A model generated the notes under the pieces. That model did not search any database. It was not told the DNA's origin and saw nothing but the letters and a program-made list of their open reading frames with translations. This document shows, one piece after another, positions 53,611 through 63,999 of a stretch of 64,000 nt of DNA. The DNA is from Neoasaia chiangmaiensis (GTDB lineage Bacteria; Pseudomonadota; Alphaproteobacteria; Acetobacterales; Acetobacteraceae). Both the position numbers and the translations under genes were made by a program. The stretch lies in contig NZ_CP014691.1 in the NCBI RefSeq assembly GCF_002005465.1, positions 2,382,501 to 2,446,500 of the forward strand. The letters run 5' to 3'. Each line of letters opens with the position of its first letter. Position 1 is the stretch's first letter.

Positions 53611-55959
53611 ATGTCTTGCAGGGTCCGGGCCGCAACACGCTGCCTTCTCACAGCGGGTGTTGCCACCATGATGGCATCTTCCGCGCTGGCACAGACTCCA
53701 GTCGCGTCGCGGCATGCCCGGGCTGCCCGTTCGACGACACGTCCAGCGACGCATCCCGGCACGCGCCCGGCGGCGCAGGCCGTTCCCGGTGTTCATACCG
53801 GTTCGGGAACCCCGGATCAGACTGTTGATGCCGCGCCGGGAGAGGCTATCACGGTTTCCGCCACGCGTCGGCGCACGACCACACATGACGTCGCCAACTC
53901 CGTGACTGTGCTCACAGGGAAAAAGCTCGAACAGATCGGAGCACAATCCTATGAGGACTACATCAAGCTCATTCCGGGGGCGACGTTCACGCCGACCGTC
54001 CCCGGCATCTCGACCATCACGTTTCGTGGCATTTCCACGACGGCTGGTCTCGATCAGGGGCAGGGCACGACGGGGTATTTCCTGAACGACATTCCTCTGA
54101 CCGAGCCGGGATTCGCGATCGACATTCCCAATATCGACACGTTCGACGTGGCCCGTGTCGAGGCGCTGCGCGGGCCACAGAGCACACTGTTCGGATCGGC
54201 GACACTGGGCGGCGCCATCGACTACATTCCCAATCAGGCCGATGCGTCGAAATGGGACGCGGCCGCGCAGTCGACCATCGACGGCATGCCGGGTCACGAA
54301 GTCGGCTATGGCGAAAAAGGGATGATCAACATCCCGCTTATCAAGGGTAAACTCGCCATTCGCGGCGTGCTCGATTATCGTCAGGATCCCGGCTATATCA
54401 CCAATCTCGGCGTCGGACGCAACACGAACACGACCTATACGCGCAACGCCCGCGCAAGCATCGTCTTCACGCCAGTGGACGGCACCAAGATCGCCTATAC
54501 CTATCTCGGACAAAGCGTCCAGGTGTCGGACGACCCCTATTCCGAACCCCAGGCTTTGGGCGATTACACCAAACAGCGCGGCATTACGGAGCGCGTCTAT
54601 ACCCAGACCCAGATGCATGAACTTAGGCTCGATCAGGAACTGCCATTCGCGACATTGTCCGCCATGGGCGCATTCCTTCGCAAAGGGCAGAGCAGCTACT
54701 GGGACGACACACCCTTTTTCGGACAGGTCGTACCTGGCCTAAACTCACCGACCTACGCGCCACAGGACGGCGACAGCAAGTCAATGTATTACGAGGTGCG
54801 GCTGGCTTCCCATCAACATAGCAATTTCACCTGGCTGCTCGGCGCCGCATTCTACGAGACGTGGAAACGGATCAGCGCGCCTGTGCTGACACCTGGAATC
54901 GAGCCTGCACTTGCCGGAATTTATGGGCCAGCACTTGCGAGTCAGCTTGTATCTCAGGGCGACGACTGGGAAAATCCGGATGTCGCGAAGTATGACGGTA
55001 CCGAAAAGTCGATCTTCGGCGAGATGTCCTATCGCTTTTTGCATGACTTCACTGTGACCGGCGGCGCGCGCGTGTTCAACATGTCGCAGAATTCCTCAAG
55101 CGAGCTCGGCGGCTACGGTGCCTATCTCGATTATGGCACACTGTATCATCGGGGTGCGTCCACCGTCTCACAGACGAGCGCACTGCCGAAATTCTCGATC
55201 AAATACGAGCCGAACCGGCAGGTTATGGCGTATTTCCTCCTGTCTGAAGGTTACCGGTTCGGCGCGCCCAACACCAATCCGATCAACCCGAAATACCCGA
55301 CACCCGCAGGCACCAAGTCGGACAGCCTGATCAACTACGAGACGGGTGCGCGCCTTAACTTTTTCCATAACCACCTTGTTCTCGAACCGACACTCTACTG
55401 GATCGACTGGAGCAATATGCAAACGCGTCTGTCGCGTCCGGACGGCATCACGTATGGCGCGAATGTCGGCAGTTCGACCAGCCGGGGTTTCGAATTTACC
55501 GGCACATGGTTCACGCCGCTGCCTGGCCTGTCGCTGAACGTGAACGCGACATATGACGACGCGCATACGAACCATACCATCACCGAGGCATTCGGCACCG
55601 TCATCGCCAAAGGATCTCAACTTGCCTCCAGCCCGAAATGGCAGTTCAGCGAAATCCTCAGCTATCAGAGCGATACCCTGCCGTTGCATCCACTGTTTTC
55701 AGTCGTGCATCACTATCAGGGCAGTGCGCCCGGTTTGCTCGGCAATTCCTTCCGGATTGGGGATTATAACACGGTCGATATCCGGGCCACGGGCACGTTC
55801 AAGACGCGGATCGGCACGTCTTCCATCAGTCTCTACGTCAACAATCTCAACAACTCGCATGGCGTGACGATGGGCTACATCAACGGTGCCCCGACGCTGG
55901 ACCAAATTTACTTGATGCCGCCCCGCCTCATCGGCATGACAATGAACTGGCATCTTTGA
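53611..55959 (+). CDS. TonB-dependent outer-membrane receptor
   Basis: A receptor of 782 residues with a signal peptide (CLLTAGVATMMASSALAQ), a Thr/Pro-rich linker, a TonB-box-like EAITVSATRR, plug motifs (TITFRGISTTAG, then VEALRGPQSTLFGSATLGGAIDYI) and a barrel ending GMTMNWHL. The plug resembles receptors of the sucrose/oligosaccharide and siderophore group. AGGAAGGA lies about ten bases before the ATG. It is downstream of the AraC gene and near the S9 peptidase and APC permease genes, so a peptide or peptide-like ligand is a fair guess. Confidence 0.92.
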   Translation: MSCRVRAATRCLLTAGVATMMASSALAQTPVASRHARAARSTTRPATHPGTRPAAQAVPGVHTGSGTPDQTVDAAPGEAITVSATRRRTTTHDVANSVTVLTGKKLEQIGAQSYEDYIKLIPGATFTPTVPGISTITFRGISTTAGLDQGQGTTGYFLNDIPLTEPGFAIDIPNIDTFDVARVEALRGPQSTLFGSATLGGAIDYIPNQADASKWDAAAQSTIDGMPGHEVGYGEKGMINIPLIKGKLAIRGVLDYRQDPGYITNLGVGRNTNTTYTRNARASIVFTPVDGTKIAYTYLGQSVQVSDDPYSEPQALGDYTKQRGITERVYTQTQMHELRLDQELPFATLSAMGAFLRKGQSSYWDDTPFFGQVVPGLNSPTYAPQDGDSKSMYYEVRLASHQHSNFTWLLGAAFYETWKRISAPVLTPGIEPALAGIYGPALASQLVSQGDDWENPDVAKYDGTEKSIFGEMSYRFLHDFTVTGGARVFNMSQNSSSELGGYGAYLDYGTLYHRGASTVSQTSALPKFSIKYEPNRQVMAYFLLSEGYRFGAPNTNPINPKYPTPAGTKSDSLINYETGARLNFFHNHLVLEPTLYWIDWSNMQTRLSRPDGITYGANVGSSTSRGFEFTGTWFTPLPGLSLNVNATYDDAHTNHTITEAFGTVIAKGSQLASSPKWQFSEILSYQSDTLPLHPLFSVVHHYQGSAPGLLGNSFRIGDYNTVDIRATGTFKTRIGTSSISLYVNNLNNSHGVTMGYINGAPTLDQIYLMPPRLIGMTMNWHL

Positions 55960-56405
55960 ATTTTTTAGAACCAGTCTTCACCTCCATAGTCGTGGCACAA
56001 ATTTGGAGGCATGCAATGTGAGGAAGTACGAAAGTCCGGTTGGCTGCCTTTATGCGCGCAGAGCCTACATGCGTCCTAACACCACAAATCCCCTGTCGGC
56101 TTAGCGGAAATAGAGCGGACAGGCGGCTGTCGCCCTCATTTCGGACGCAGGCGAAGTGACTTGCGTTTCCTGGAATCGGACATGTGAACAGATTGGCGGA
56201 GAGTCGGTGTCCGTTGTTCTCGATGCGATTCATTCCCTTGAGATGAACTCCACCGACGATGAGAGGCTATGGAACGAGGCTTCTCCAAGGGAGACAGGCA
56301 GACAACCCGTATTCGCGGCTCGTCGGACCTGGAGCCGGGACTTCACTCACAAAGCGGCGCTGGCGCGCCTTGAAAATCTTGACGGTATCGCCGAGGATGT
56401 CTCCA
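55960..56405. other. Region between the TonB receptor and the retron RNA
   Basis: No convincing gene in 446 bases. A plus-strand frame from 56156 runs through here and across the retron RNA but has no ribosome-binding site and no recognisable family. A CCTGTC...GACAGG inverted repeat lies at 56092-56123, inside a repeat whose diverged partner lies beyond the retron. The promoter of the retron RNA should lie at the right end; TTGACG at about 56379 could be a -35 element, but no good -10 follows. Confidence 0.5.
56091..56153 (+). repeat. Left flanking repeat of the retron locus
   Basis: The sequence CCCTGT...GACAGGCGG-N4-CGCC-N-TCAT-N-TC...CAGGCG also appears at 58321-58396 after the reverse-transcriptase gene, in the same order and orientation with diverged spacers. 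The two copies bracket the retron. Confidence 0.5.
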
Positions 56406-56540
56406 GGCTTACAGGCAGAGTTGTTATCGCGTATCGCGATATAAGACATCGATGTTGGGCAGTGATGCTTCCAACTACCCTTATTGCAGCTGCAAAGCTG
56501 AGCGGACGATCGATCGGTCGCATAGGAGTGCCTGTAAGCC
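56406..56540 (+). ncRNA. Retron msr-msd non-coding RNA (Ec67-like)
   Basis: The template and primer RNA for msDNA, about 135 nt. It is bounded by a perfect 12-bp inverted repeat, GGCTTACAGGCA (56406-56417, a1) and TGCCTGTAAGCC (56529-56540, a2). Directly after a1, GAG offers the branching guanosine at 56418, by analogy with Ec67. The msr part has a 7-bp hairpin TATCGCG-TAT-CGCGATA (56425-56441) and a second stem GTTGG/CCAAC (56454-56475). The msd part has the palindrome TTGCAGCTGCAA (56484-56495) and a GC-rich stem around ACGATCGATCGGT (56505-56517). The edges AGGCAGA-TTGTT and AGGAGTGCCTG closely recall those of retron Ec67 from memory. It ends 19 bases before the reverse-transcriptase gene. 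Confidence 0.85.
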
Positions 56541-56559
56541 GCCAATTTAAGGAAGAAGA

Positions 56560-58302
56560 GTGTCGAGCCTGGCAAAACTACAATCGGCCAAATCGCTTGA
56601 CGAGCTGGCCGCGATCCTAGGGTATAAGCCAGCAGCACTTGCTTATCTCCTTTATCATCTACCCACCGCGCGGAAATACACCACCTTCACTATCCCCAAA
56701 CGCGACGGTACTCCGCGCGACATTCTGGCGCCGACGCCAAAATTGAAGTTGCTCCAGCGCCGTCTCGCCAATGTCCTCTATCTGGCGCTGGCGGATATCG
56801 ACAAAGCGGGTGCGCCTCGCCGACACCTCTCGCATGGCTTTGCCAAACATCTGTCGATCGTCACCAACGCAAACGTCCATAGGCGGCGACGCTATGTGCT
56901 CAACCTCGACCTCAAGGATTTCTTTCCGTCAATTAATTTTGGCCGGGTGCGTGGTATGTTCATCAAGGACAAGCGCTTCGCGCTCGACCCAAAAATCGCG
57001 ACCCTGATCGCGCAGATTGCCTGTCATAACAACGTGCTGCCGCAGGGCAGCCCATGTTCTCCGGTCATCTCAAATGTCATCGGCCATCTACTCGACATTC
57101 GGCTGGTCCGCCTCGCCAAGGCACAGAAATGCACATATTCCCGCTATGCTGATGACATCACCTTCTCCACGAACGCTAAGTTGTTCCCTGCCGATATGGC
57201 CGCTCTGGTCGCTGGAACGGAGCATGAATGGACGCTAGGCGCGGCGCTGATCGAGGAGATCGACAAAGCCGGCTTCGCAATCAATCCGGTCAAGACACGG
57301 ATGCAATACCGTGGATCGCGTCAGGTAACGACCGGCCTTCTAGTCAACGAAAAGCCAAATATCCTCCCGGAATATTATCGCCCTGTCAGGGCGATGTGTT
57401 GGTCTCTATTCAACAACGGCAGCTACTATCGTGTGGTCCCTGCCACTTTGGCGGGCGGCAAACCAGGTGATCCCGATGTGCAGGAACCAGCAACCTCGCT
57501 CGCGCCGCTGCAAGGGATGCTCGGCCACATCTATCATGTGCGCGATCAGATCGACCAACGGTCTTCTGCTGAAAAGAAGAAAGAGACGACGGCCACCGCG
57601 ACACGTAAGCTCTACCACCGGTTTCTATTCTATCGAAACTTTATTGTGGCGCCCAAGCCTCTTATCATCCCCGAGGGCAAGACTGACTCGATCTATCTCC
57701 AGGCAGCGATAGAAAAGCTCATCGCCTATCATCCGCAGCTCGGCCGCATGGACAAAGGTAAGTTCAAGTCTGCACTCAAATTCATGAATTTTTCGAGTAC
57801 AGTGCATGCCGTGCTTCAGCTCGGCAGCGGATCTGGAGATCTATTTCACTTCATAAGGAAGTATCATGAACTACTAAAGCATTACCATCATAGGCCTTTG
57901 CCCAACCCGGTGATCGTACTGATTGACAATGACGACGGTGCCAAGGAGATTTTCGGGGCTGCTAAGGGACTTGGCGCTATAGGGATTTCACTCACGTCCA
58001 CAGATGCCTTCTATCGGCTCGGCCCCAATTTGTATCTCATCAAAACCCCGGAGACTGGCCCAAAGGGTAAGAGTTGTATCGAAGATCTATTCGATCCAAC
58101 GCTCCTGAAAGCAGAAATCGACGGTAAGAAATTTGACGTCAATAAAAAGCATGGTGAACCTGGAAAATATGGGAAGCAGATATTTGCTGAGAAAGTTGTG
58201 CGACCGAAGAAGGATATTATAGACTTTTCAAAATTTTCCGGGTTGCTTGATCGCATTGTATCGGCTCTCGATGACTACACAGCAAGCCCACCGCCACCTT
58301 GA
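56560..58302 (+). CDS. Retron reverse transcriptase fused to a TOPRIM domain
   Basis: A protein of 580 residues. Retron reverse-transcriptase landmarks in order are NANVH (the NAxxH motif, 103-107), LDLKDFFPSI with the first catalytic Asp (116-125), QGSPCSPVISN (162-172), YADD (196-199) and QVTTGL near 255-260 (VTG-type motif that reads the RNA). From about 365 a TOPRIM nuclease domain follows: LIIPEGKTDSIYL with the Glu at 372 and VIVLIDNDDG with the DxD at 456-458. This fusion is the architecture of retron Ec67, classed as type I-C to my knowledge. GTG 56560 has AAGGA six bases upstream. The last quarter is AT-richer than its neighbours, suggesting transfer. Expected role: makes msDNA and acts in anti-phage defence. 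Confidence 0.95.
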   Translation: MSSLAKLQSAKSLDELAAILGYKPAALAYLLYHLPTARKYTTFTIPKRDGTPRDILAPTPKLKLLQRRLANVLYLALADIDKAGAPRRHLSHGFAKHLSIVTNANVHRRRRYVLNLDLKDFFPSINFGRVRGMFIKDKRFALDPKIATLIAQIACHNNVLPQGSPCSPVISNVIGHLLDIRLVRLAKAQKCTYSRYADDITFSTNAKLFPADMAALVAGTEHEWTLGAALIEEIDKAGFAINPVKTRMQYRGSRQVTTGLLVNEKPNILPEYYRPVRAMCWSLFNNGSYYRVVPATLAGGKPGDPDVQEPATSLAPLQGMLGHIYHVRDQIDQRSSAEKKKETTATATRKLYHRFLFYRNFIVAPKPLIIPEGKTDSIYLQAAIEKLIAYHPQLGRMDKGKFKSALKFMNFSSTVHAVLQLGSGSGDLFHFIRKYHELLKHYHHRPLPNPVIVLIDNDDGAKEIFGAAKGLGAIGISLTSTDAFYRLGPNLYLIKTPETGPKGKSCIEDLFDPTLLKAEIDGKKFDVNKKHGEPGKYGKQIFAEKVVRPKKDIIDFSKFSGLLDRIVSALDDYTASPPPP

Positions 58303-58640
58303 GCGGCCAGGCCGGTTTCCCCCCTGTACTGCCTATCCGCTCAAGGAATATGAAGCAGACAGGCGGGATACGCCGTCATGTCAGTCATTCAGGCGGTTGG
58401 GAGAGCTTCCCGAAAGCTGACATGAATCATCCGATGCTCTACCGGAAAAGGCGGATAGCGGACTTGTGCGCGCATTCTATCCAGTCGAGGTTCGAATCTC
58501 GGCGGACGGGCCGAGAACGGTGAAGATGGGCGGTATTCCTACGCCATAGCCACCTGAGGCACGCCAAGCCTCTCCTATGCTGTGGCCCTAATCGAACAGA
58601 TACAATTGGTACGTTCTCGGTTCGGTTTTCCAAGATGAGG
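58303..58640. other. Region between the retron and the DUF3732 remnant
   Basis: No gene in 338 bases. It contains the right copy of the flanking repeat (58321-58396) and a hairpin-forming AGCTTCCCGAAAGCT at 58406-58420. At about 58487-58510 lies a tRNA-T-arm-like GAGGTTCGAATCTCGG, the sort of sequence left by integration at a tRNA gene; no complete tRNA can be folded around it. Confidence 0.5.
58321..58396 (+). repeat. Right flanking repeat of the retron locus
   Basis: This is the partner of the repeat at 56091-56153: CCCCTGT, then GACAGGCGG, four bases, CGCC, TCAT, and a final CAGGCGG in the same order. It begins 19 bases after the reverse-transcriptase stop codon. Confidence 0.5.
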
Positions 58641-60200
58641 TTAAGCTCGGGCGTCGATCCAGCTTTGCGGCACCAGCCCTTGTCCTCTCCAACGAGCGAC
58701 GACGGCATCGGCGAACCATTTGTCCCGCAGATCAGCATGATCGGTCACAATCACCTGGAAATTCGGCGCCAGTTCGACCGCCACCTCAAACATCAGCTTG
58801 AAAAGTTTGAACACGGCCTCGCGATCCGCGTCCGGAAGATCCGACAAGTCTCCGGCGCGATCCTGCTCCGCCGGATAATGAGCCTGCGAAGGCTGGTCGA
58901 AGAAGATGAAGCCGGGGACGGGACGATTCTTCTGCCGGAACCAGCGATGCAGCGCGAGATGTGCGAGCACGTGATAGCCTACCCAGTTCTCGCCGCTCCC
59001 CATGCGGAATAGCGGGACTGGGCCATCGAGCGTATCGGCGACGACCGCGAGCTGCCGGATATCCAGCCGCAGGCGGCTACCACTATGCTCCAAGTCTAGC
59101 TTTTCTGAATCCCGCGTCATGTAGTCGCCGATCAGATTGAGAGTCGAGGTCAATCGCTCAGCGGTATTCTCTGGGTCGACAAGCTTCTCGAGCGCTTCAA
59201 CGCGTTTGCGCGCCGCGTCCAATTCGTCGACCGACGTCGTCGCGGCTGGCGGAGGCGGCAAGGTTTCTAGGAAATAGGCAATGCGGCCCATCGTCCGAGC
59301 GAGGCGAAGCTGGCTGTCCCGCTCCGTTCGAAAGGCGTCGTCCTGTTTGGCCAGCGCGTCGATCTGGCCTTGGTTATGCTTGAGTGCATCCTCGACGTCG
59401 TTCTGCTTCGCGACCAGTTCGCCCTGGGCTTCCTGCAGACGGGGTACCTCTCGCCGGACCTGGCTCAGTTGTTCGTCGATCCCGCTCAAGGTTTTATGCA
59501 TCTCGGCTACCAATGGGACATGCAGATCGGTCGATCCGCACAAGGCGCAGGTCTCCACGTCACCCTTGGCGACCAACCCGAGGGTCGCCAGCCTGGCGCG
59601 CTGCTCATCAGCTTCGTGCGCAAAGCCTCCGGCCACATCTTCGACATGCCTGATCTGGCGAAGCCGTTCTTTCAGGACTCCAAGCTCACGCCGCAACGAC
59701 GTTCGCTCGCGCCGAAGGATCGCGATCGGTTCGGTCGAGTCCGGTGGGACTGGGACTTCCTGGATCACCGGGTTGATGGCACGAAGGCCGCTGAGAGCTA
59801 TGTCCTGCGCCGGTGGTTGTCCTGGAGGGATCAGACCAACGGATTGCGCCTCGCGGAACATTTCTTCCGTACGTGCGCCAGAGAGATTGGCGAGTTGCTC
59901 GCGCTCCCCAGCGAGCTTCTGCAGCTTCCTCAGCTCTTTCCGCTCAAGATCGAGCTGTACCTTCCGCCGTAGCAGATCCTCGTCGATCGCGCCGAGAAAG
60001 TAAGGGAGCACGTCCTTGATCGTTTGCGGCAGGAAGGGCTCGCTCTGACGGTGAAACAGTATCTTCCGACTATCGATCTCGTCTTGATCCTGGATACAGA
60101 ACATCAAGGCGTGGCGGATGTTGGCTGCAATCGGCCATGCCATATCGGCATTCTGTATCTGGACGGATTTCATCTCGATATCCTTCGTTCTGCTTTGCAG
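58641..60200 (-). pseudogene. 5'-truncated DUF3732 (SMC-like ATPase) gene
   Basis: About 510 residues of a Rad50/SMC-type protein of the DUF3732 family. Present are NADMAWPIAANIRHALMFC and LFHRQSEPFLPQTIKDVLPYF, two long coiled-coil arms joined by a hook with CALCG (Zn-hook-like CxxC), a signature-like SGENWVGYHVLAHLALH, and Walker B FIFFDQPSQAHYP. The N-terminal Walker A domain is missing: the frame has no start that fits and runs into the neighbouring hydrolase gene at about 60206. DUF3732 proteins occur in multi-component conflict (ABC-3C-type) systems, so this is probably a dead defence gene beside the retron. Confidence 0.75.
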
Positions 60201-60205
60201 GCTCG

Positions 60206-61123
60206 TTACGCCAGCTTGGCCTGAAAGAACGGCGCGAGCACGGAAACGGCTTCGGTCACGAAGGCTTTTCCATCGTAGAGATCCATGTGATTGGCGCCTT
60301 TCACGATATGGACCGACTTGTCCGCACTGGCAGCGCGGTCATACAGATCGTCACTCATCCATTTGCTGCCCGCGTCGCTGCCGACGACGATCTGGATCGG
60401 TTGCGTCAGATAGGTTTCGGCCATGTGATAGGCATCATAGGTGACAATCTGGTTCAGGCTCCGCAACGTAGCAAAGCCCGGCGCGGTCGCGCATTCGGCG
60501 CGGGGCGTGTGATAATACTCCCAGGCCTGACGCAGCTCCTCGTTCGGCGCATCTTTCTCCGTCAGCGGCGCGAGTGGCATGGTGGCGTAACCGTTGCCTG
60601 CGGCATCTGCGGTGCGGGCATTGGACCCGGCTTCGATCAGCGGAAGCGCGTCGATCGAACGCACCGAATTGTCCCAGCCATTGCGGAACATGGAGCCGAT
60701 ATTGACTGCGCTGACGGTGCCGATTGCCTTGATGCGACGGTCCTGAATGGCGGCATTGGCCGTATAGCCCGCGCCCGCACAGATGCCCATCGCGCCGATG
60801 CGGTTCTGGTCGATGTAGGGCAGCGTCGTCAGATGGTCGATAACGGCGCTGACGTCTTCCGTACTGACGTAGGGGTTTTCAAGCTGGCGTGGCTCACCGC
60901 CGCTTTCACCCTGACAGGACCGGTCGAACGCAATGGTGACAAAGCCCTGTTCCGCGAGTTTCTGCGCGTAGGTGCCAGCCGTCTGCTCCTTCACGCCGCC
61001 GCCAGGGTGGGAGACGACAATGGCAGGCCATTTTTTCGCCTCGTCGAAGCCATTGGGGAAATTGATTACGGCAGACATGGTGATTGTGGGGTTGTTCGAA
61101 TTGGTAAAGCTGATCTTGCCCAT
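60206..61123 (-). CDS. Alpha/beta hydrolase (YcjY / dienelactone-hydrolase-like)
   Basis: A hydrolase of 305 residues. It has IVVSHPGGGVKEQT (oxyanion), the nucleophile elbow AMGICAGAGYTAN with Cys in the nucleophile position, VVGSDAGSKW near the acid residue and the His in KGANHMDLYDG. The Cys nucleophile is typical of the YcjY/DLH-related group whose substrates are poorly known. ATG 61123 is preceded by AGGAGA with about eight bases of spacing, better than the ATG 24 bases upstream. It is divergent from the LysR fragment at 61217, a classic regulator-target pair before that gene was broken. Confidence 0.87.
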   Translation of the reverse strand: MGKISFTNSNNPTITMSAVINFPNGFDEAKKWPAIVVSHPGGGVKEQTAGTYAQKLAEQGFVTIAFDRSCQGESGGEPRQLENPYVSTEDVSAVIDHLTTLPYIDQNRIGAMGICAGAGYTANAAIQDRRIKAIGTVSAVNIGSMFRNGWDNSVRSIDALPLIEAGSNARTADAAGNGYATMPLAPLTEKDAPNEELRQAWEYYHTPRAECATAPGFATLRSLNQIVTYDAYHMAETYLTQPIQIVVGSDAGSKWMSDDLYDRAASADKSVHIVKGANHMDLYDGKAFVTEAVSVLAPFFQAKLA

Positions 61124-61216
61124 GGCTTTGTCTCCTGTTGATGACATCAGGATAAGACAGGTGCATTGTGTGGATTAGAGAGATAATTTGTCATGGCCCT
61201 ATCACTGGAGTGATCA

Positions 61217-61706
61217 ATGAGGCGGGATGAAATCGCCGATCTGGCAGCTTTCGTCGTGGTGGCCGAGGAAGGCAGCTTCACCAAGGCGGCCCGTCGTCTT
61301 GGCATTGCACAGTCCGGTCTGAGCCAGATCGTGCGGCGGACGGAAGAACGGCTGGGCATGCGCCTGCTGTCACGCACCACCCGCAGCGTGGCACCGACGG
61401 AAGCGGGCGAGCGGCTGCTCGCGACACTTGGCCCCATGCTGCATGATCTGGACGCGGCGGTGGCCTCTCTGGGTGATTTGCGGGACCGTCCATCGGGCAC
61501 CATCCGGGTGACGACCGTGGAACATGCGGCGAAAACCATTCTCCTTCCCGGCGTGAAGCAGCTTCTGCGAGACAATCCCGATATCCGCGTGGACGTGACC
61601 ATCGATTACGGACTGGCGGATGTGGTGGCAGATCGCTTCGACGCTGGCATCCGGTTGGGCGGCGAGATTGCGAAAGACATGATCGCTGTACGGATCGGTC
61701 CGGATA
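61217..61706 (+). pseudogene. LysR-family regulator, 3'-truncated
   Basis: The N-terminal helix-turn-helix (FVVVAEEGSFTKAARRLGIAQSGLSQIVRRTEE) and the first lobe of the effector domain are intact up to AVRIGPDMP at about residue 163. The sequence then switches to a luciferase-like monooxygenase. About 130 residues of effector domain are missing. The fused frame continues to 61867 without matching the family. It is divergent from the hydrolase gene at 60206-61123, which it probably once controlled. Confidence 0.8.
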
Positions 61707-62061
61707 TGCCATGCTGGCCGTCAATGCGATTATTGGAGATACACCAGCCGAGGCGCAGCATGCAGCGACTTCACTGGAGCAACATTTTGTTGCGCTGCGT
61801 CGAGGGCGTCCGACGCAATTTCCAGCATCTCGCGCTGTTTCGTGGAGCGAACCGGAACAGGCTCTGATCGACAGAACCCTGCGTTATACGTTTACAGGAA
61901 CGGCAGATGTCGTGGCTGCAGGCATTTCCGCTTTCATAAAACAGCATCAGCCTGACGAACTCATGATTGGTGCGCCTCTCTTCTCACAGGTCGCGAGGCG
62001 GGCAACTCTTGCCGGCATTGCGCAGAAGCTGATAAATCATCAGTCAGTGGAAGTTTCGTGA
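61707..62061 (+). pseudogene. 3' fragment of a luciferase-like flavin monooxygenase
   Basis: About 117 residues from the C-terminal end of an LLM-class flavin-dependent oxidoreductase: LAVNAIIGDTPAEAQHAATSLEQHFVALRRG, then DELMIGAPLFSQVARRATLAGIAQ. This is the tail seen in MsnO8-type proteins. The TIM-barrel core and flavin site are absent. It begins exactly where the LysR fragment ends, so one deletion fused the two. Its last 18 bases overlap the end of the convergent dnaE2 gene. Confidence 0.78.
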
Positions 62062-63999
62062 CTTTACCACCAGATGTTCGGATCTGGAGTCCTGTAGTTC
62101 TAAACCAATGTCTTGCAAGGAGCGGTTCCCGACATCCGCCAGCAATCCCGATAGGTCCCTGATCTCCTTCGCCACCAGATGCACGACCTCGCCCTCCCTC
62201 TGCAGCATGCCTTTTACGGCCAGCATCTGTCCGCCCAATATCATCCGTCGGTTCGCATCGAATAGATCCGGCCAGATGATGACGTTCATGTTGGCCGTCT
62301 CATCCTCCAGCGTCATGAACACCACGCCTTCGGCTGAGCCGGGGCGTTGCCGAACCAGCACTAGCCCAGCGACAGTCAGGCGCTTTCCATCCTTTGCCGC
62401 CAGCGCCTGCCGACAGGTGACGATGCCCTGTGCCAGCAGATCACCCCGCAGAAAAGTCAGCGGATGATCCCGCAGGCTCAGGCCAAGCCGGTTGTAATCG
62501 CGCACCACTTCCGCCCCGTCGTGCATGGGCTGCAGCAGCACATCCGGCTCCTCCGCTTCCCGCGTTACCTGGGCTGCCGCGAACAGCGGCAGCGGTTCGT
62601 CCCGTAGCGCCTTGATTGCCCACTGCGCCTCGCGCCGTGGCAACCCGAGCGAAGGCCGGAACGCATCCGCTTCTGCCAGATGGGTCAGTGCTGTCGCCTT
62701 CACGCCAACCCGACGCCACAGATCATCGATCGAGGTAAACGTGCGCGAGGTCCGTGCGGCAACAATTCGGGCCGCATCGTCATTGGCCAGCCCCTTGACC
62801 AGACTCATACCCAGTCGCACGGCGAACATCCCGTCTGGTCTTTCCGGCCCTTCCAGTGTGCTGTCCCAGCGCGAGGCATTCACACAAACTGGCCGGATTT
62901 CCACGCCATGTTCCCGCGCATCGCGAACCAGTTGTGCTGGTGCATAAAATCCCATTGGTTGACTGTTCAGAAGCGAGGCCAGAAACACATCCGGATGGGT
63001 GCATTTCATCCAGGACGACGAATAGGCCAGAATGGCGAAACTGGCGGCATGGCTCTCGGGAAATCCGTAAGACCCGAACCCTTCGAGCTGCTGATAGATC
63101 CGTTCTGCAAATTCTTCCGGGTAACCGTTGGCCCGCATGCCTTCGATCAGACGTCTCTGGAACTGTGAGACAGTGCCGGTATTTTTGAACGTCGCCATGG
63201 CCCGACGCAACTGATCGGCCTCAGCGGCAGTAAACCCCGCACAGATCATGGCGACCTGCATCGCCTGCTCCTGAAATAAGGGAATACCCAGTGTTTTCCT
63301 CAGAACCTTTTCCAATTCCCGGGTGGGATAGTTTTCCGGTTCGATCCCTTCGCGCCTTCGGAGATACGGATGCACCATATCGCCCTGAATTGGTCCGGGC
63401 CTTACGATCGCCACTTCAATGACGAGATCGTAGAACACACGCGGTTTGAGCCGTGGTAGCATGGACATCTGGGCGCGGGATTCAATCTGGAAGACGCCAA
63501 TGGTGTCAGCCTTCCTGATCATGGCGTAAGTGCGTGGATCCTCCGCCGGGATGGTCTGAAGGGTGAAGTGCTGATTCTTATGGTCCGCCAGCAGATCCAG
63601 CCCCTTTTTCATGCAAGTCAGCATGCCCATAGCGAGGATATCGACCTTCATGAATTTCAGGACGTCGATATCGTCCTTGTCCCACTCGATGATCTGGCGC
63701 TGCTCCATCGATGCAGGCTCAATGGGCACAAGCTCATCCAGCCGGTCATGCGTCAGCACAAATCCTCCGGGGTGCTGTGACAGGTGACGAGGTACACCAA
63801 TCAGGCAGCGGGCCAGATCAAGGGTCAGACGGATGCGCCGGTCGGACAAATCAATGCTGCTGTCAGTCAGGGCGTCATCGTCCAGCTTGCGCCCCCAGCC
63901 CTGAATCTGGCCCGACAGTGTGCGGATCAGGTCTTCCGGCAAGCCCATGACCTTGCCGACATCGCGTAAGGCCCCCTTGGCGCGATAGCGGATCACCAC
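62044..63999 (-). CDS. dnaE2: Error-prone DNA polymerase III alpha subunit DnaE2 (C-terminal part)
   Basis: The C-terminal 651 residues of the polymerase used in translesion synthesis with ImuA/ImuB; the 5' part lies outside the window. Visible are the palm block with [27 protein letters not shown] (two catalytic Asp region), [22 protein letters not shown], the helix-hairpin-helix region and the OB-fold ([18 protein letters not shown] with [20 protein letters not shown]). It lacks the tau-binding tail of DnaE1 and ends SRNFH, as DnaE2 proteins do. No frameshift is seen. Confidence 0.94.

What the first reader, a model, noticed from the sequence alone, without database searches (positions are those of the whole stretch)
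56406..58302. Ec67-type retron in an alphaproteobacterial genome
A structured RNA with matching a1/a2 arms lies 19 bases before a retron-type reverse transcriptase carrying the NAxxH, YADD and VTG-like motifs, fused to a TOPRIM domain. Retrons of this architecture are characterised mainly from enterobacteria. A copy with its own RNA in this lineage would be a new experimental member and a likely anti-phage system.
Basis: partly seen in the sequence, partly recalled or inferred. Interest (0 to 1): 0.9.

Follow-up and report, generated by a model that had tools for sequence, protein, structure and literature searches.

The report
Ec67-type retron in acetic-acid-bacteria family
This stretch holds an intact, well-kept copy of a known bacterial anti-virus device, a retron of the Ec67 kind, in a relative of the acetic acid bacteria; the find is real, but the kind is already known and is already annotated in related bacteria.

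Summary
Window 56406-56540 encodes a retron RNA with a perfect 12-bp a1/a2 stem, ending 19 nt before a 580-aa reverse transcriptase-Toprim fusion (56560-58302, GTG start). The protein scores 693.9 bits against NCBI's curated Ec67 model (cut-off 450) and 717 against PADLOC type I-C. It aligns nearly end to end with the solved Ec67/Eco2 protein (220 of 566 residues identical), with YADD and most named Toprim residues kept. On 26 RNAs the structure covaries; in the msr hairpin, not used to select them, 6 of 7 pairs show two-sided changes. By the Ec67 rule it should give a 74-nt msDNA. dN/dS to the two nearest relatives compared is about 0.06. The host looks like Acetobacteraceae; the nearest copies (83-89%) are in sphingomonads and one MAG, so the cassette moves horizontally. 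Novelty is low: the family is already annotated in Sinorhizobium, Rhizobium and Sphingomonas, and a review reports msDNA from rhizobia. New here are the member, a broad alignment of type I-C RNAs, and two direct copies of a dispersed intergenic repeat flanking the cassette, whose meaning is open. No msDNA or phage test was possible.

The parts
56406..56417 (+). a1 arm of the retron RNA
   Evidence: 12-bp perfect pairing with 56529-56540; 11 of 12 pairs changed on both sides in some of 26 sequences. The sequences were selected by this pairing, so the percentage paired is partly by construction.
56418..56418 (+). predicted branching guanosine (CAGA context, as in Ec67)
   Evidence: aligned with rG15 of Eco2; CAGA context of Eco2 stated in PMC6868368 (passage)
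56425..56441 (+). msr stem-loop (counterpart of the RSL of Eco2)
   Evidence: 7 bp, 94% of cells paired, 6 of 7 pairs with changes on both sides; not used to select the sequences
56454..56527 (+). predicted msd template, giving a 74-nt msDNA (first dT opposite A56527, last base opposite G56454)
   Evidence: columns of the Ec67 start and stop carried over the alignment; the same columns give 67 nt for the Ec67 locus L130; folds as three short hairpins
56529..56540 (+). a2 arm of the retron RNA
56560..58302 (+). retron Ec67-family RT-Toprim fusion protein, 580 aa
   Evidence: NF038237 693.9 bits, cut-off 450; PADLOC RT-Toprim_I-C 2.9e-216; PDB 9lm3/9i2f 8.7e-109; dN/dS 0.058 and 0.061 to L002 and L004
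56866..56880 (+). NAxxH motif (NANVH, aa 103-107)
57145..57156 (+). YADD catalytic motif (aa 196-199)
   Evidence: aligned with Y199-D202 of Eco2
57658..58299 (+). Toprim effector domain (aa 367-580; boundary carried over from Eco2 residue 369)
   Evidence: E372, D376, D456, D458, E508 match E374, D378, D460, D462, E515 of Eco2; S513 is C506
56072..56191 (+). left copy of a dispersed intergenic repeat
   Evidence: found by nhmmer at 56090-56186, E 5.3e-11, with a profile that did not contain it; cmsearch with R1, 84.8 bits, but this copy is among the sequences R1 was built from
58312..58431 (+). right copy of the same repeat, same orientation
   Evidence: nhmmer E 2.6e-35 and cmsearch 121.5 bits, but this copy is in the seed of both

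Best explanation
An intact type I-C (Ec67/Eco2-like) retron: a one-gene abortive-infection system. Inferred steps: the msr-msd RNA is transcribed with the gene. a1 and a2 pair, and the RT primes on the 2'-OH of G56418 and copies 56527 back to 56454. The resulting branched msDNA (about 74 nt) stays bound to the RT-Toprim protein and holds the Toprim nuclease off. When a phage factor damages or alters the msDNA (in Eco2 probably the DenB nuclease), the Toprim domain cleaves RNA and stops the infected cell. Shown here: the gene, motifs, most catalytic residues, RNA structure with covariation, purifying selection and horizontal spread. Not shown: transcription, msDNA, complex, trigger, nuclease activity, protection.
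For: Curated family score above cut-off and PADLOC I-C. Alignment to the solved Ec67 protein over residues 2-573, 220 of 566 identical, with YADD, F46, R184, E374, D378, D460, D462 and E515 kept. RNA covariation in 26 sequences: 97.8% of cells paired and 17 of 19 pairs with two-sided change, each reached by 0 of 500 shuffles; slid versions pair 24-44%. RNA upstream of 25 of 28 other RT-Toprim loci and of 36 of 39 viral-contig loci examined. dN/dS 0.058 (L002) and 0.061 (L004), while the RNA keeps 127 of 135 and 125 of 136 positions although pS is 0.55 and 0.67. The RT domain groups with L002 and L003 inside the retron RTs. Genes beside the retron at L002 and L004 match defence models. Mechanism of Eco2: PMC12405507.
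Against: No sigma-70-like promoter found in 55900-58700: 0 found, 2.2 expected in shuffles; alphaproteobacterial promoters may differ. R332 of Eco2, needed for its defence, is Q333 here in a poorly alignable loop; H281 is W281, S513 is C506, and VTG is TTG. The printed catalytic K562 could not be mapped: residue 562 of the aligned chain is D. The predicted msDNA folds as three small hairpins, whereas PMC12405507 describes one long hairpin for Eco2. One covariation measure, the number of further pair types, is reached by 4 of 500 shuffles. Three of 28 loci lack the RNA by my rule, though two of these had little or no upstream DNA. Two genomes of the host family carry broken copies (G013, G031).
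Confidence: 0.88

Rival explanations
1. The locus is a retron by descent but is silent or inactive in this host: a recent arrival with no working promoter, or damaged at residues needed for assembly.
For: No promoter-like site found; detectable homology to L003/L004 begins at 56404, two bases before a1, so no conserved promoter was seen to travel with the cassette; R332 not kept; broken copies in family members G013 and G031.
Against: Open frame intact, most named catalytic residues kept, RNA arms perfect, dN/dS about 0.06. This selection is summed over the branches to L002 and L004 and does not prove activity in this host.
Confidence: 0.12
2. The retron works, but by another chemistry: the Toprim domain cuts DNA (as in Gabija) rather than RNA.
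For: Toprim domains of related defence effectors cut DNA (PMC12405507 Discussion); the domain matches no Pfam Toprim model at E 0.001, so the annotation rests on the Ec67 family.
Against: The solved relative Eco2 has RNase activity that falls when E374 and D378 are changed (PMC12405507), and E372, D376, D456, D458, E508 are kept here.
Confidence: 0.12
3. The RT is not a retron but another defence or intron RT that happens to stand beside a hairpin.
For: RVT_1 matches many RT classes.
Against: 693.9 bits for NF038237 against 43.8 for the group II model; RT tree; covarying RNA at a fixed place before the gene.
Confidence: 0.01

Closest known systems
Retron-Eco2 (Ec67), type I-C, E. coli; PDB 9lm3, 9i2f
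   Same: Single RT-Toprim protein, 39% identical over 566 aligned residues; same order msr-msd then gene; CAGA branch context; same msr hairpin; start and stop columns of the msDNA alignable.
   Different: msDNA predicted 74 nt, not 67; msd folds as three short hairpins; TTG for VTG, W for H281, Q for R332, C for S513.
Retron Ec67 family copies in Sphingopyxis witflariensis (L003), Sphingomonas turrisvirgatae (L004) and a Trueperaceae-labelled MAG (L002)
   Same: 83-89% identical protein; RNA 94% (L002) and 92% (L004, same RNA as L003) identical; gap between a2 and start 19 or 18 nt against 19.
   Different: DNA homology found spans 56368-58304 (L002) or 56404-58302 (L003, L004) only, in the flanks held; neighbours are pAgo and SIR2 at L002 and PD-Lambda-3_B at L004 (L003 not scanned).
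Plasmid copies in Sinorhizobium meliloti GR4, Rhizobium indicum, Sphingomonas sp. AP4-R1
   Same: Annotated 'retron Ec67 family RNA-directed DNA polymerase/endonuclease' in alphaproteobacteria.
   Different: 38-47% identical; other branches of the tree.
Type XI (RT-protease) and XII (RT-TIR) retrons
   Same: Related RT domain, single-gene fusion.
   Different: Other effector domain; PADLOC scores 325-332 bits against 717.

Membership tests
Type I-C retron (Ec67/Eco2) | Retron RT with NAxxH, YADD and VTG motifs | tested here: met
   NANVH 103, YADD 196, TTG 257 in place of VTG
Type I-C retron (Ec67/Eco2) | C-terminal Toprim fusion with the catalytic glutamate and DxD | tested here: met
   E372, D376, D456, D458, E508. 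The printed K562 of Eco2 could not be mapped. No Pfam Toprim hit at E 0.001.
Type I-C retron (Ec67/Eco2) | Score above the curated cut-off of the family model over full length | tested here: met
   NF038237 693.9 bits, cut-off 450, residues 4-573, profile 1-572
Type I-C retron (Ec67/Eco2) | msr-msd RNA with a1/a2 and a branching G just before the gene | tested here: met
Type I-C retron (Ec67/Eco2) | RT groups with retron RTs rather than other RTs | tested here: met
   33 retron rows split from 2 other RTs (L064, L066; taken as group-II-like, not tested) at 100/100
Type I-C retron (Ec67/Eco2) | RT lies in a type I-C clade | tested here: inconclusive
   The window joins I-C rows L002 and L003 at 100/100, but I-C as a whole is not resolved as one clade: forks among I-C rows are often weak, L043 falls outside (82/81), and the 9 other-type rows group together (92/97) within the same unresolved fork.
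Type I-C retron (Ec67/Eco2) | Produces branched msDNA | not testable with these tools
   needs RNA/DNA from the host or a clone
Type I-C retron (Ec67/Eco2) | Autoinhibited RT-Toprim:msDNA trimer | tested here: inconclusive
Type I-C retron (Ec67/Eco2) | Protects against phage | not testable with these tools
   no experiment possible
Group II intron or maturase RT | Scores above the group II maturase model cut-off | tested here: not met
   TIGR04416 43.8 bits, cut-off 300

The most novel reading that the evidence does not exclude
In this family of bacteria, defence modules such as this retron are swapped as cassettes between copies of a dispersed, hairpin-bearing intergenic repeat. The retron lies between two direct copies, of at least ten in the 3.4-Mb genome at E below 0.001. 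Comparable repeat-gene-repeat units, one of them a CHAT operon in Gluconobacter, would then be members of one exchangeable set, with homologous recombination between repeats as the means of exchange.
Probability: 0.1. Interest if true: 0.5.

Novelty: new member of a known kind. Interest (0 to 1): 0.25.

Why it matters
It adds an intact type I-C retron from what looks like the acetic-acid-bacteria family to a set whose solved example is from E. coli, with a predicted msDNA of different size and folding. That makes one question directly testable: whether the trigger follows the msd sequence or the protein. The alignment of 26 RNAs could serve as a model for finding type I-C RNAs; the Rfam search of the window reported only rRNA and tRNA at the curated thresholds. 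It does not change what is known of retrons.

Tried and rejected
Group II intron, DRT and other RT readings were rejected on scores and tree. The RVT_1 search of the genome gave this one match, so no second RT confuses the picture.

Prophage or plasmid origin: a megablast of 55960-58640 against plasmids found only one record with 4% of the query, from the repeat. The best phage-record match was 33.9% identical. blastn found no homology to L002-L004 outside the cassette in the flanks held, about 3 kb on each side but only about 1.3 kb on the right of L003. So no carrier element was identified. An empty site could not be shown, because the genus search held no genome but the own one.

tRNA-based integration: the region after the right repeat holds a GGTTCGAATCTC tract that looks to me like a tRNA T-arm, but ARAGORN finds no tRNA there. 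Not pursued.

Repeat as a defence-specific boundary: the evidence is mixed and I did not adopt it. In other records PADLOC families such as HerA, LmuA, type I methyltransferase and type IV restriction appear among 48 flanking ORFs (48 of the 80 listed). The tool shows 25 of 126 matched families and not the number of distinct matching ORFs, and no matched control was run. In the window's own genome 0 of 10 ORFs tested, from six of the nine regions fetched, match PADLOC. Their Pfam names are mostly ordinary: efflux, FAD oxidase, protease, with one resolvase and a sub-threshold PIN domain.

Literature: retron + type I-C + Alphaproteobacteria gave 0 papers, and retron + Acetobacteraceae gave 1 paper, on another bacterial family by its title. 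Most subscription papers are not in that library.

Full report
WHAT IS THERE. The window holds a 580-aa ORF (56560-58302, +, GTG start). Its RNA arms pair perfectly: a1 56406-56417 with a2 56529-56540; a2 ends 19 nt before the start codon. The stretch 56400-56560 folds at z -3.3 against shuffles. The protein matches NCBI model NF038237 (retron_Ec67_fus) over its whole length at 693.9 bits (cut-off 450) and PADLOC RT-Toprim_I-C at 2.9e-216. Pfam sees only RVT_1. In the PDB the best chains are Ec67 (9lm3, 9i2f) at 8.7e-109 over residues 2-573.

CATALYTIC RESIDUES. Using the alignment printed and the residues named in PMC12405507 (abstract, Results and Discussion read, not Introduction or Methods), I mapped 30 functional positions. 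Kept, 20: F46, R56, K66, R70, R184, Y199, D201, D202, K245, R247, S253, Q329, D331, E374, D378, D460, D462, E515, R555, K557. Changed, 8: T249 to Q, R264 to E, H281 to W, R332 to Q, K383 to Q, H387 to E, K418 to T, S513 to C. Y333 falls in a gap. The printed catalytic K562 is D in the aligned chain and could not be placed; K539 of the window is invariant in the 27 rows of A4, the window included.

THE RNA. In one search I looked for a1/a2 pairs upstream of RT-Toprim loci by a rule that requires an a2 after GAGT-like letters. Of 28 distinct loci other than the window's own, 25 have the RNA. The misses are L043, L007 (only 186 nt upstream held) and L079 (a partial gene with no upstream held). 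L045, a divergent RT-Toprim row by PADLOC, did not pass the length filter and was not examined. A free search for the longest stem also found 11-bp chance stems at L007 and L043, so stem length alone proves little. In viral contigs, 36 of 39 loci examined have the RNA, counting identical copies. The 39 are of 59 loci found: two were dropped for lack of upstream DNA and 18 because the match covers the RT only. Control with the rule that also asks for GA after a1: 11 bp or more in 2 of 5000 Markov-shuffled upstreams and in 0 of 43 upstreams of other RTs (43 of 63 listed), against 25 of 25 type I-C upstreams, which however had been chosen as those with the RNA.

COVARIATION. The alignment has 26 RNAs: the window, 24 loci (L004 dropped as identical to L003) and the Ec67 locus L130. 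97.8% of cells pair and 17 of 19 pairs show changes on both sides. Four of five measures are reached by 0 of 500 shuffles and the fifth, further pair types, by 4 of 500; slid structures pair 24-44% of cells. The a1/a2 helix was used in selection, so its 100% pairing is partly circular. The msr hairpin was not, and it has 94% paired cells and 6 of 7 pairs with two-sided changes.

PREDICTED msDNA. Eco2 starts its DNA with dT linked to rG15 and ends it opposite rG52; the DNA is 67 nt (PMC12405507). L130 encodes the solved Ec67 chain exactly over the 576 residues compared. On L130, counting back from rG52 puts the first template base at the A before GUG, which gives 67 nt. The same columns on the window give 74 nt, from A56527 to G56454. 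The 74-nt DNA folds as three short hairpins, while PMC12405507 describes one long hairpin for Eco2. The branching G lies in CAGA, as PMC6868368 (passages only) states for Eco2. Size and ends are inferred.

SELECTION. Against L002 and L004 the gene has dN/dS 0.058 and 0.061, with pS 0.55 and 0.67, while the RNA keeps 127 of 135 and 125 of 136 aligned positions. So RNA and protein are both held by selection across these lineages.

HOST AND SPREAD. Among plasmid records the 23S-5S stretch ranks Acetobacter aceti first (91.9% over all of it), then Roseomonas (90.2% over 91%) and Oecophyllibacter (92.6% over 84%), with Phyllobacterium at 86.9%. I read this as Acetobacteraceae; that the first three belong there or nearby is recalled, except Acetobacter. 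Matches over the family cut-off occur in 6 of 385 genomes of the class, 6 of 398 of the phylum and 6 of 395 of the order, the own genome counted in each and the samples overlapping. Two of the six in the class sample have internal stops (G674, G538). In a sample of the family, 22 of 299 genomes have some RT match; six have matches to both the RT and the Toprim part, two of these broken (G013, G031). The nearest relatives found are L002 (89%, labelled Trueperaceae MAG, perhaps misbinned), Sphingopyxis L003 and Sphingomonas L004 (83%). In the tree the window joins L002 and L003 at 100/100, and other copies from its family stand in four other places, one of them weakly supported, which I read as repeated horizontal transfer. 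An RT-domain tree with other retron types keeps it with L002 and L003 among retron RTs but does not resolve type I-C as one clade.

CASSETTE AND NEIGHBOURS. DNA similarity to L002 covers 56368-58304, and to L003/L004 56404-58302; blastn found none outside in the flanks held. Beside the retron the window has a 5'-truncated LmuB (Lamassu) gene (58641-60173, -; profile 141-608 of 611). L002 has pAgo and SIR2 genes, and L004 has PD-Lambda-3_B.

A REPEAT ON BOTH SIDES. An nhmmer profile of an intergenic repeat, built from the right-hand copy and four other copies, also finds a left-hand copy at 56090-56186 (E 5.3e-11). In the 64-kb window these are the only two, apart from weak reverse-strand echoes of their hairpin. 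They are direct copies that bracket the retron. The own genome has 10 matches at E below 0.001, with 150 of 1313 candidates scored and own copies among the model's sequences, so this is a lower bound. Similar repeats occur in 17 of 200 sampled genomes of the family, the own one included and with at most four candidates scored per genome, and in 7 plasmid records: six of Gluconobacter, Komagataeibacter or Acetobacter and one of Zymomonas. In a Gluconobacter plasmid, copies bracket a CHAT operon near dnaE2, and the window also has a dnaE2-like gene nearby. In the own genome 0 of 10 neighbouring ORFs tested match PADLOC, so the repeat is not limited to defence genes.

NOVELTY. Plasmid records already name the family in alphaproteobacteria, enterobacteria, enterococci and staphylococci. 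PMC6868368 (passage) reports msDNA in 10 of 63 rhizobia isolates. The listings showed no report of this locus by title or start of abstract; one search showed 10 of 15 and 10 of 683 papers. For PMC12548924 I saw one passage; other papers only in listings. The locus is a new member of a known kind.

Noticed in passing
window 56072-56191 and 58312-58431: Two direct copies of a dispersed hairpin-bearing intergenic repeat flank the retron; at least ten copies in the genome at E below 0.001, and others in the family and on its plasmids.
   Followed up: partly
window 58641-60173 (-): LmuB/DUF3732 gene lacking the first about 140 positions of the profile; the next gene on that strand is a hydrolase, so it looks like a broken Lamassu remnant.
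   Followed up: partly
window 60116-61710: Segment 93% identical over 1595 bp to G000:C1 near 3363269 (L033), with a further partial copy at 95% over 590 bp (L037). Its left end lies inside the LmuB ORF and its right end inside a short LysR-type ORF, as if the duplicated segment had cut both.
   Followed up: no
window 62044-63999 (-) and L197 12481-15621: A DnaE2-like polymerase stands near the defence region in the window and also beside a repeat-flanked CHAT operon in Gluconobacter albidus: a possible shared insertion hot spot.
   Followed up: no
L002 4858-7688: The closest retron copy stands next to a pAgo (Class I) and SIR2 gene pair.
   Followed up: partly
L011, L012, L042, L044: RT-Toprim copies with stops or frame breaks whose RNA arms still pair over 12 or more bases, G-U allowed.
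   Followed up: no
L043 1339-3495 (-): A 719-aa RT-Toprim relative over the family cut-off with no recognisable type I-C RNA upstream by my rule, and a long branch in the tree.
   Followed up: no
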